Positions 34,924-36,689 of a stretch of DNA of 38,539 bases are shown piece by piece; position 1 is the first letter of the stretch; each line of letters opens with the position of its first letter. The notes below the pieces were generated by a model. The model worked only from the letters and a program-made list of their open reading frames with translations. It ran no database searches and had not been told where the DNA came from. The stretch spans positions 1 through 38,539 of IMG/VR virus record IMGVR_UViG_3300027899_000032; one strand, given 5' to 3'. The position numbers were made by a program, and so were the translations under genes. This DNA comes from a virus.

Positions 34924-36689
34924 CAAGTTCGCTCTCTGAAAAACAGCTCCTTTCTCTCACAGATTCTGATGCTAAAATAAATATATGGGAAGGAGCTGTA
35001 CGTTCTGGTAAAACATACATTTCGCTCTGGAGATGGCTTAAAGAGCTCACCTACGGTGTTCCTGGCGAGTATTGCATGATCACGAGGACCTACGATACAT
35101 TCAAAAGAAATATACTACCTCAGCTCATGCAGCTTATTGGAGTGCATGACGTCAGGCACTATAGTGGCAAACGAGAGTTAGTTATATTCAACAAGAAAAT
35201 TCACATTATCGGGGCGGACGATGAAAGATCAGAGAGTAAAATTCGAGGAGCGACTTTCTGCTCTGCCTATGTCGATGAAACAACGATAATTCCCGAGACG
35301 GTATTTAGGATGCTCATAAGCCGTTGTTGCATGGGCAATTCTAAAATATTTGCTACTACAAACCCTGATAGCCCCTACCATTGGCTAAAGAGGGATTATC
35401 TAGACGGAAATCCAGACGTTAAAAGTTGGAAATTTACGCTAGACGACAACCCGCAATTGACAGAAGATGAAAAAGCATACCTCAGGAGACAGTATAAGGG
35501 CATATGGTTTCAGAGATTTATCGAAGGGAGATGGGTGCAAGCGGAGGGTGCAATCTATGATTTTTTCGACAGCATCTTGCATGTAATAGATTTCCCGCCA
35601 GGACCAGCAGAGTGCTATATCGTCGGGGTGGACTATGGCACGGTCAATGCGTGCGCTTATGTTCTAATAGGGATAAACAGGTCCAGATATCCGAATATGT
35701 GGGTAGAGAATGTATATTATTGGGACAGCAAAATTAAACAACGGCAAAAAACAGACTCTGAGTATGCAGCAGATCTCGCAAAATTTATAACAGGTCATCA
35801 CGTCAAGGCAATTTACGTCGACCCATCGGCAGCCTCATTTAAATTGGAGCTATCGAGAGCGGGTATATCTAATCTGTACGATGCAGAGAATGAGGTAATA
35901 GACGGTATCCGCCTAGTGAGTAAATACATGTCCAATGGCACGCTGAAAATATGCAGAAATTGCGAACCATTAATTAGAGAGATACAGGGCTATGTATGGG
36001 ATGCAAAATGCGCTAAAACTGGGGTCGACAAGCCAGCAAAAGAAAACGACCATGCCTGTGTTGTTGGTTCAACAAAAGTTCTTACAAATAATGGTGAAAT
36101 AAGAATCGATGAAATTTCGAAATCTGGAGTTATCGTTAACTTTAATATAGATTTAGGAGTATTTGAAGAAGATAAATTTAATAATGTGTCAATCACTAGG
36201 AAAAACGCTGAAATTTACGAATTAGAGTTGCTCGACGGTTCGATGCTTCGCGCTACTGGAGATCATTTGATATTAACATCAAAAGGGTATAAAATGCTTC
36301 AAAACTTGACACAATCAGATATGGTGATTAAGACGACGTCGAAGAAAATTGCGAATTTTGCAAAAATAAATTTAAAAGAAATAAATATGATAAAAAAACA
36401 TGTTGCTCAATGTCCTGTGCAGCAAAATTGCGTTGGTGTAAAAGGCGTTAGAAAAGTTGAAAATGAAGATGTCTATTGCCTAGCGACAGAAAAAAACGGA
36501 AATTTTATCGCCAATGGAATAGTTATTAAAAACTGTGATGCCTTACGCTACGCCCTCTTTACGCACTTTTTCGGGAAAGACCATCGTACATTGTCATCAC
36601 AGGAGCTAGATCGACTCTACAGCGAGGCAATTGGCGGTAGCTCTCTCCCAGCTCCATTTAACGACGTATCGACTGGATACAGGTTTTAA
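34920..36689 (+). CDS. terL: Large terminase subunit (ATPase-nuclease) containing a mini-intein
   Basis: The frame has 589 codons; removal of the 159-residue intein leaves a 430-residue terminase, the usual size. Walker A GAVRSGKT is at residues 25-32, Walker B AYVDE has D119/E120, and the coupling motif FATTNPDSP follows. The RuvC-like nuclease has D238 (VDYGT), D301 (VDPSA) and the third motif KENDHA/CDALRYALF, split by the intein at residues 380-538. The enzyme cuts and pumps DNA through the portal. Start ATGA overlaps the upstream stop. Because the third nuclease motif is interrupted, activity should depend on splicing. Confidence 0.95.
   Translation: MTSSLSEKQLLSLTDSDAKINIWEGAVRSGKTYISLWRWLKELTYGVPGEYCMITRTYDTFKRNILPQLMQLIGVHDVRHYSGKRELVIFNKKIHIIGADDERSESKIRGATFCSAYVDETTIIPETVFRMLISRCCMGNSKIFATTNPDSPYHWLKRDYLDGNPDVKSWKFTLDDNPQLTEDEKAYLRRQYKGIWFQRFIEGRWVQAEGAIYDFFDSILHVIDFPPGPAECYIVGVDYGTVNACAYVLIGINRSRYPNMWVENVYYWDSKIKQRQKTDSEYAADLAKFITGHHVKAIYVDPSAASFKLELSRAGISNLYDAENEVIDGIRLVSKYMSNGTLKICRNCEPLIREIQGYVWDAKCAKTGVDKPAKENDHACVVGSTKVLTNNGEIRIDEISKSGVIVNFNIDLGVFEEDKFNNVSITRKNAEIYELELLDGSMLRATGDHLILTSKGYKMLQNLTQSDMVIKTTSKKIANFAKINLKEINMIKKHVAQCPVQQNCVGVKGVRKVENEDVYCLATEKNGNFIANGIVIKNCDALRYALFTHFFGKDHRTLSSQELDRLYSEAIGGSSLPAPFNDVSTGYRF
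36057..36533 (+). other. Mini-intein in the large terminase
   Basis: A 159-residue in-frame insertion starting CVVGSTKVLTNNGEIRIDEI (block A with Cys1) and ending NFIANGIVIKN before Cys+1. Block B is LRATGDHLILT with Thr67 and His70. Block F/G is DVYCLATEKNGNFIANGIVI. No DOD or other homing-endonuclease domain is present. Unusual residues: penultimate Lys instead of His, Gly where the block F His usually lies, and Cys141 where Asp is common. The bases are more AT-rich than the flanking terminase sequence. It is inserted at the metal-binding DHA-CDALRY motif, a typical intein choice. Confidence 0.9.

What the first reader, a model, noticed from the sequence alone, without database searches (positions are those of the whole stretch)
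36057..36533. Mini-intein inserted in the nuclease active site of the large terminase
Seen: a single frame reads terminase, then 159 residues with intein blocks A, B and F/G, then terminase. The flanks join as KENDHA-CDALRYALF, an uninterrupted third metal-binding motif of the RuvC-like nuclease, and the spliced size (430) is normal. Known: inteins favour conserved active-site motifs. Inference: packaging and DNA cutting would be off until splicing, so the intein could act as a timing switch.
Basis: partly seen in the sequence, partly recalled or inferred. Interest (0 to 1): 0.8.

Follow-up and report, generated by a model that had tools for sequence, protein, structure and literature searches.

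The report
Re-fused split intein in phage terminase
The protein that packs this phage's DNA carries a self-removing insert (an intein) in the middle of its cutting site, and the insert still holds, in a shifted reading frame, the tail of a deleted DNA-cutting 'homing' gene, showing that a protein once made as two pieces has become one piece again.

Summary
Residues 380-538 of the TerL ORF (36057-36533) are an intein: Pfam/NCBIfam matches above curated cut-offs, a confident Hint-fold model, purifying selection, and 18 close intein-free TerL loci joining exactly at DHA|xDALRY, the catalytic Asp motif. The 'timing switch' is unsupported.

The surroundings show more. The intein's nearest relatives are split: N-intein, stop, an HNH endonuclease ORF in the +2 frame, then a separate C-intein/C-extein ORF. 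The window's intein is continuous but keeps, in the +2 frame (36332-36451), the last 39 codons of that HNH gene (67% identical to L004). So it is a split intein re-fused by a roughly 470-nt in-frame deletion of its endonuclease gene; the out-of-frame leftover is now its linker. L073 re-fused independently.

At the same TerL site, 23 distinct viral contigs and three GenBank phage records carry a continuous intein with a complete HNH gene overprinted in the +2 frame, both frames open. The nearest published precedents are 'fractured genes' and the 'ShiLan' out-of-frame HNH insertion, which has no splicing domain. New variant of a known kind. Splicing itself is untested; the penultimate residue is Lys, not His, throughout its clade.

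The parts
34920..36056 (+). TerL N-extein, 379 aa: ATPase plus most of the RuvC-like nuclease, ending ...KENDHA
   Evidence: TIGR01547 PBSX-family TerL 125.6 bits; an intein-free relative (L016) matches D6E TerL 5OE8 at E 3e-70
36057..36533 (+). Continuous 159-aa intein, no in-frame endonuclease
   Evidence: Pfam/NCBIfam above cut-offs; AF2 mean pLDDT 90.5, pTM 0.84; Foldseek best NrdJ-1 intein 8ubs E 6e-10
36057..36332 (+). N-terminal splicing half, residues 1-92: Cys1 (36057), T67 (36255), H70 (36264)
   Evidence: 66-72% identical to N-inteins of L002-L004, 58% to L006; dN/dS 0.07-0.22; AF2 pLDDT above 90
36333..36431 (+). Linker, residues 93-125: read out of frame from the leftover HNH 3' end
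   Evidence: AF2 pLDDT falls to 54-64 at residues 101-120; no clear match to other inteins
36332..36451 (+). HNH endonuclease fossil in the +2 frame: DDVEENCEFCKNKFKRNKYDKKTCCSMSCAAKLRWCKRR*, HNH codons 158-196; deletion junction at about 36330-36332
   Evidence: 67% identity over 39 aa to L004 HNH; the only significant hit of L002, L003 and L004 HNH in the window (tblastn E 2e-15 to 5e-9); score 167 versus max 130 in 2000 synonymous recodings
36387..36389 (+). Relic ATG at the place where the C-intein ORF starts in split relatives; their upstream AGGA is AAGA here
   Evidence: aligned DNA of window, L002, L003, L004, L006
36432..36533 (+). C-terminal splicing half, residues 126-159, ending ..ANGIVIKN (Lys158-Asn159)
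   Evidence: 71-85% identical to C-inteins of L002-L004 and L006; dN/dS about 0.1 where calculable
36534..36689 (+). TerL C-extein CDALRYALF... (51 aa + stop); Cys+1 at 36534, catalytic Asp at 36537
   Evidence: 50-64% identical to C-exteins of intein-bearing relatives and matched in empty relatives; Asp motif essential in G20c TerL

Best explanation
The insert is a cis-splicing intein with class-1 residues in TerL. Inferred chemistry: Cys380 makes the N-terminal thioester, the chain moves to Cys539, Asn538 cyclises, and the exteins join as KENDHA-CDALRY, restoring the metal-binding Asp of the nuclease. It descends from a split intein whose halves were made as two ORFs with an HNH homing-endonuclease gene between and overlapping them in the +2 frame. 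In this lineage an in-frame deletion of about 470 nt removed all but the last 39 codons of the HNH gene and joined the halves into one ORF; the surviving HNH tail, read out of frame, is the low-confidence (probably flexible) linker. The intein has lost its own endonuclease and so should no longer home, but is kept because TerL needs it to splice.
For: Intein identity. Exact insertion against 18 close empty loci (L008-L026 without L017). Split relatives L002-L005, CL2 and L071/L074/L077 etc.. HNH fossil with synonymous-recoding control; its substitutions against L004 fall at HNH codon positions 1/2/3 as 3/9/19, so the HNH was under selection for most of the divergence. Window intein nests inside split relatives (UFboot/SH-aLRT 100/92), and L002/L003/L004 share stops at HNH codons 13 and 76, so their common ancestor was split. 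Purifying selection with near-saturated dS. Independent re-fusion in L073, sister to split L078 at 99/87; out-of-frame HNH loss in L006, still split. Loss of the AGGA before the now unneeded internal ATG.
Against: Splicing is not shown. Penultimate His is Lys, which could slow Asn cyclisation (but Lys is in all five close clade members, and L068, L086 and L109 also have it). The re-fusion rests on one sequenced lineage. The sister grouping of the window with L066 is only 94/74. L068, just outside the clade, is continuous without detectable HNH, so the deeper ancestor's state is open.
Confidence: 0.84

Rival explanations
1. The intein is dead or only cleaves, so this TerL is defective.
For: Penultimate His is replaced by Lys; the HNH gene is lost.
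Against: All other catalytic residues are kept, dN/dS is 0.07-0.22 with near-saturated dS, the model is a complete Hint fold, and the same Lys is in all clade members including L002, whose TerL is otherwise near-identical to an empty allele.
Confidence: 0.06
2. The intein acts as a timing switch that delays DNA cutting and packaging until splicing.
For: It interrupts an essential metal ligand of the nuclease; conditional inteins are known from other work (own knowledge).
Against: Presence alternates among close relatives; 18 close loci lack it; the element's distribution is that of a mobile element. Nothing in the sequence points to a trigger.
Confidence: 0.03
3. Opposite polarity: the window shows the old continuous mini-intein and the relatives gained the HNH later.
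For: Continuous mini-inteins without HNH signal also occur (L068, L073, L171).
Against: The window already holds 39 codons of the HNH C-terminus in the right frame with substitutions concentrated at HNH wobble positions. A gene cannot insert so as to find its own tail already there. Relatives share old stop codons.
Confidence: 0.02
4. The window's ancestor was not split but carried a continuous intein with an overprinted HNH, and the deletion merely shortened it.
For: 23 distinct IMG/VR loci have that arrangement, with the same +2 frame.
Against: The nearest relatives L002, L003, L004 share stop positions in the intein frame, and the overprinted loci are distant on intein and HNH trees.
Confidence: 0.1

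Closest known systems
TerL inteins of phages (Lactobacillus phage CL2 KR905067, Brochothrix phage BL3 HM144386, crAss-like phages in Yutin et al. 2021 PMC7886860)
   Same: Intein in TerL; CL2 and BL3 at the identical DH^C...NC^xDA.RY site, CL2 N-intein 52% identical
   Different: CL2 is split with an intact HNH gene, BL3 split with a decayed one; the window is a single ORF with only an out-of-frame HNH tail and Lys instead of His before Asn
Fractured genes: split inteins with a free-standing endonuclease gene between the halves (Dassa et al. 2009, NAR 37:2560; paper not held, content from own knowledge)
   Same: Window's relatives L002-L005, L062, L071, L074, L077-L082 etc. have this layout
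   Different: Here the endonuclease is HNH_3 plus zinc motifs and, in L002-L005, overlaps both intein halves out of frame; the window has gone back to one ORF
[quoted passage not shown] 2025, Genes 16:178, PMC11855218)
   Same: HNH gene read in the third frame of an insertion that stays open in the host gene's frame
   Different: The authors found no splicing domain there; in the TerL elements here the HNH lies inside a recognisable intein with both splicing halves
NrdJ-1 split intein (PDB 8ubs)
   Same: Closest solved structure by sequence (E 4e-6) and fold (Foldseek E 6e-10)
   Different: Different host protein; naturally split

Membership tests
Intein (class 1) | N-terminal Cys/Ser nucleophile | tested here: met
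   Cys1 at 36057; invariant in eight aligned TerL inteins
Intein (class 1) | Block B TxxH | tested here: met
   T67-G-D-H70, invariant T and H
Intein (class 1) | C-terminal Asn followed by Cys/Ser/Thr | tested here: met
   Asn159 then Cys+1 (window sequence)
Intein (class 1) | Penultimate His in block G (common, not universal) | tested here: not met
   Lys158; also Lys in L002-L006, L068, L086, L109
Intein (class 1) | Hint fold | tested here: met
   AF2 pLDDT 90.5; 62 Foldseek matches at E <= 0.001, the 50 listed being inteins or related Hint domains
Intein (class 1) | Insertion precise against intein-free homologues | tested here: met
   18 close loci join exteins at the exact site
Intein (class 1) | Protein splicing activity | not testable with these tools
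   needs expression
Naturally split intein / fractured gene | Halves on separate ORFs with an endonuclease gene between | tested here: not met
   Window is one open frame; its relatives L002-L005 are split
ShiLan-like out-of-frame HNH insertion | Intact HNH ORF in a shifted frame within the insertion | tested here: not met
   Only codons 158-196 remain in the window; met in L160, L124, L216, L217 and others
Large terminase (TerL), PBSX/Terminase_3-like | ATPase and RuvC-like nuclease domains | tested here: met
   TIGR01547 above cut-off; relative L016 matches D6E TerL 5OE8 E 3e-70

The most novel reading that the evidence does not exclude
TerL inteins of this lineage are a mobile element whose endonuclease gene is overprinted, out of frame, inside the intein's own coding sequence. 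The element moves between three states: continuous intein with overprinted HNH, split intein once stops appear in the intein frame, and re-fused mini-intein once the HNH is deleted. The window is a relic of the last step, the reverse of the usual one-way view that continuous inteins become split.
Probability: 0.7. Interest if true: 0.72.

Novelty: new variant of a known kind. Interest (0 to 1): 0.62.

Why it matters
Where split inteins come from, and whether the split is reversible, has mostly been argued without intermediates. This locus and L073 are two natural cases of a split intein turning back into one chain by loss of the endonuclease gene, one of them with the reading-frame fossil still in place. 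The wider TerL family joins two published oddities, fractured genes and out-of-frame HNH insertions, in a single element with a real splicing domain. It also offers new natural inteins (split, re-fused and overprinted, with Lys in place of the penultimate His) for protein engineering, and shows that standard annotation hides endonuclease genes inside TerL.

Tried and rejected
Search with the window intein alone in viral contigs gave only weak hits; the alignment search was needed. Genome contigs with A1 found only distant inteins, and their host genes were not examined. Microbacterium phage Sucha looked like a longer TerL match, but its TerL has ordinary length and the next gene is on the other strand. 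Class 3 intein considered because block F has Cys (VYC): rejected, since Cys1 is present and there is no Trp/Thr of the WCT set (residue reading, own knowledge). Amino-acid selection on the intein-frame linker of overprinted loci: not seen. Identity there is 24-40% where HNH identity is 49-65%, no higher than in split loci, so the frame is kept open, not conserved. Pfam finds nothing in the 39-aa fossil alone; the evidence is direct similarity to the relatives' HNH. AF2 of the overprinted L160 intein: Hint halves above 90 for the most part, linker about 37-57, i.e. not folded with confidence. Dassa 2009 could not be read.

Full report
OBSERVATION. The TerL ORF is 34920-36689 (+), 589 aa, in one frame. 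Residues 380-538 (36057-36533, 159 aa) match Pfam Intein_splicing at E 2e-14 and the NCBIfam N- and C-terminal intein models above their cut-offs. The flanks are TerL: TIGR01547, 125.6 bits. Cys1, T67xxH70, Asn159 and Cys+1 are present; the residue before Asn is Lys instead of the usual His.

THE SITE. In viral contigs, 18 close loci (66-82% identical over the N-extein) have no insert and run DHA-CDALRY, DHA-VDALRY, DHSLDAMRY and the like. The insertion separates the His from the Asp of the third nuclease motif. In G20c TerL the homologous metal ligand D429 is indispensable and H427 contributes (PMC5389553); mapping to the window is by homology through an intein-free relative that matches D6E TerL 5OE8. 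That the unspliced protein cannot cut DNA is inferred.

FOLD AND SELECTION. AlphaFold2 on a 34-row alignment gives mean pLDDT 90.5 and pTM 0.84; only residues 101-120 fall to 54-64. Foldseek's best PDB matches are inteins: NrdJ-1 8ubs E 6e-10, then DnaB, DnaX and RecA inteins. Against L002-L004 and L006, dN/dS is 0.07-0.22 in the N half and about 0.1 in the C half where calculable, with synonymous sites near or at saturation. The element is maintained.

SPLIT RELATIVES AND THE FOSSIL. In L002-L005 the TerL ORF stops 104 residues into the intein. An HNH ORF (Pfam HNH_3) starts inside the end of the N-intein, runs in the +2 frame, and its 3' end overlaps the start of a separate C-intein/C-extein ORF. 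A ribosome-binding-site-like AGGA (AGGGA in L003) and an ATG for that ORF lie within the HNH zinc-motif codons. In the window the same stretch, read in +2 from 36332 to the TAG at 36449-36451, is DDVEENCEFCKNKFKRNKYDKKTCCSMSCAAKLRWCKRR, 67% identical to codons 158-196 of the L004 HNH. It is the only significant hit of the L002, L003 and L004 HNH proteins in the whole window; the more distant CL2 HNH gives none. Recoding the intein synonymously 2000 times never gave an equal score (observed 167; mean 66, maximum 130). The N..C gap is 567 nt in L002, L003 and L004 and 468 nt shorter in the window, a multiple of three, so the halves were joined in frame.

DIRECTION AND TIMING. On the intein tree the window lies inside a group with three split relatives (100/92), with split L006 next (99/92). 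L002, L003 and L004 share intein-frame stops at HNH codons 13 and 76, so their common ancestor was split. Between window and L004 the fossil differs at HNH codon positions 1/2/3 by 3/9/19, like functional HNH pairs, so the deletion came late. The AGGA has become AAGA in the window, as expected once the internal start is not needed; this is one sequence and only suggestive. L073 is an independent re-fusion: its N and C halves match split L078 on both sides of a near-exact loss of the HNH. L006 lost the HNH out of frame; its N-intein now ends in the HNH tail and the C half is still a separate ORF. L017 is continuous with a 5' HNH remnant, BL3 split with a 3' remnant.

MOBILITY. On the TerL tree, presence and absence of the intein need at least six changes among 21 rows. 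L002 (split, with HNH) and L020 (empty) are 99.1% identical over 1533 nt up to the insertion and 92% just after it. This fits recent gain by homing or recent loss. It does not fit a conserved regulatory switch.

THE WIDER FAMILY. Alignment searches and classification show that most of the relatives sit at the same TerL site; a few distant hits are inteins of other genes and were left out. Two main layouts hold a complete HNH gene. In 25 distinct split loci the HNH lies in any frame relative to the N-intein, and the same shifted frame has 2-14 stops, as synonymous recoding predicts. In 23 distinct continuous loci the HNH is always in the +2 frame, and the intein frame has no stop over 158-203 codons, where recoding with each gene's own codon use predicts 1-4 each, about 47 in all (the loci are related, so this is not a simple product of probabilities). 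Substitutions there fall at HNH wobble positions while the intein-frame linker is not conserved. The HNH protein is therefore selected for sequence and the linker only for being open. GenBank phage records with the same overprinting: Acinetobacter phage Highwayman OZ038341, Tetrasphaera phage TJE1 HQ225832 and Rhodobacteraceae phage LS06-2018-MD07 OP947163. Pfam gives Intein_splicing in one frame and HNH_3 in the other for Highwayman; in TJE1 the HNH_3 match is clear and the intein match is below cut-off; LS06 was not scanned. None of the three records annotates the HNH. How the inner frame is translated is not known.

LITERATURE. Ten searches of the open library found TerL inteins in crAss-like phages (PMC7886860) and out-of-frame HNH insertions in phage methylases, whose authors found no splicing domain (PMC11855218). 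No paper on an out-of-frame HNH inside a true intein was found. The library is partial, so novelty is provisional. Fractured genes (Dassa 2009) are cited from own knowledge (not held).

VERDICT. The feature is real and mostly as described, but its meaning differs. It is an endonuclease-less, re-fused split intein with an out-of-frame HNH fossil, from a TerL intein lineage that often overprints its endonuclease. Shown: anatomy, homology, selection, fossil, relatives, polarity within the clade. Inferred: splicing, nuclease-off precursor, loss of homing.

Noticed in passing
L160:3648-4571, L124:2012-2971, L086, L113, L121, L145, L163, L169, L173, L176 and others: Continuous TerL inteins with a complete HNH endonuclease overprinted in the +2 frame, both frames open; 23 distinct loci in IMG/VR.
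   Followed up: yes
L216 (OZ038341), L217 (HQ225832), L219 (OP947163): GenBank phage records whose annotated TerL contains an unannotated out-of-frame HNH endonuclease inside an intein.
   Followed up: partly
L215:2390-3031 (Acinetobacter phage BP10) versus L216: A related HNH is a free-standing gene just upstream of the terminase genes in BP10 but lies overprinted in the TerL intein of Highwayman.
   Followed up: no
L002:1-1533 versus L020:2531-4062: Near-identical TerL alleles (99.1% DNA) with and without the split intein plus HNH: a natural pair for a homing test.
   Followed up: partly
L073:1494-1904 versus L078: Independent re-fusion of a split TerL intein by near-exact loss of the HNH gene.
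   Followed up: partly
L082, L083, L084 between N-intein and HNH: About 0.5-0.8 kb of extra sequence between the N-intein stop and the HNH ORF; content not examined.
   Followed up: no
window 34477-34923: ORF overlapping the TerL start matches the C-terminal part of phage primases (PHROG 864, E 6e-7); it sits where a small terminase gene would be expected.
   Followed up: no
window 1753-3978, 8176-9984, 9984-11525 (- strand): Large ORFs of 742, 603 and 514 aa without any PHROG match at E 0.001.
   Followed up: no
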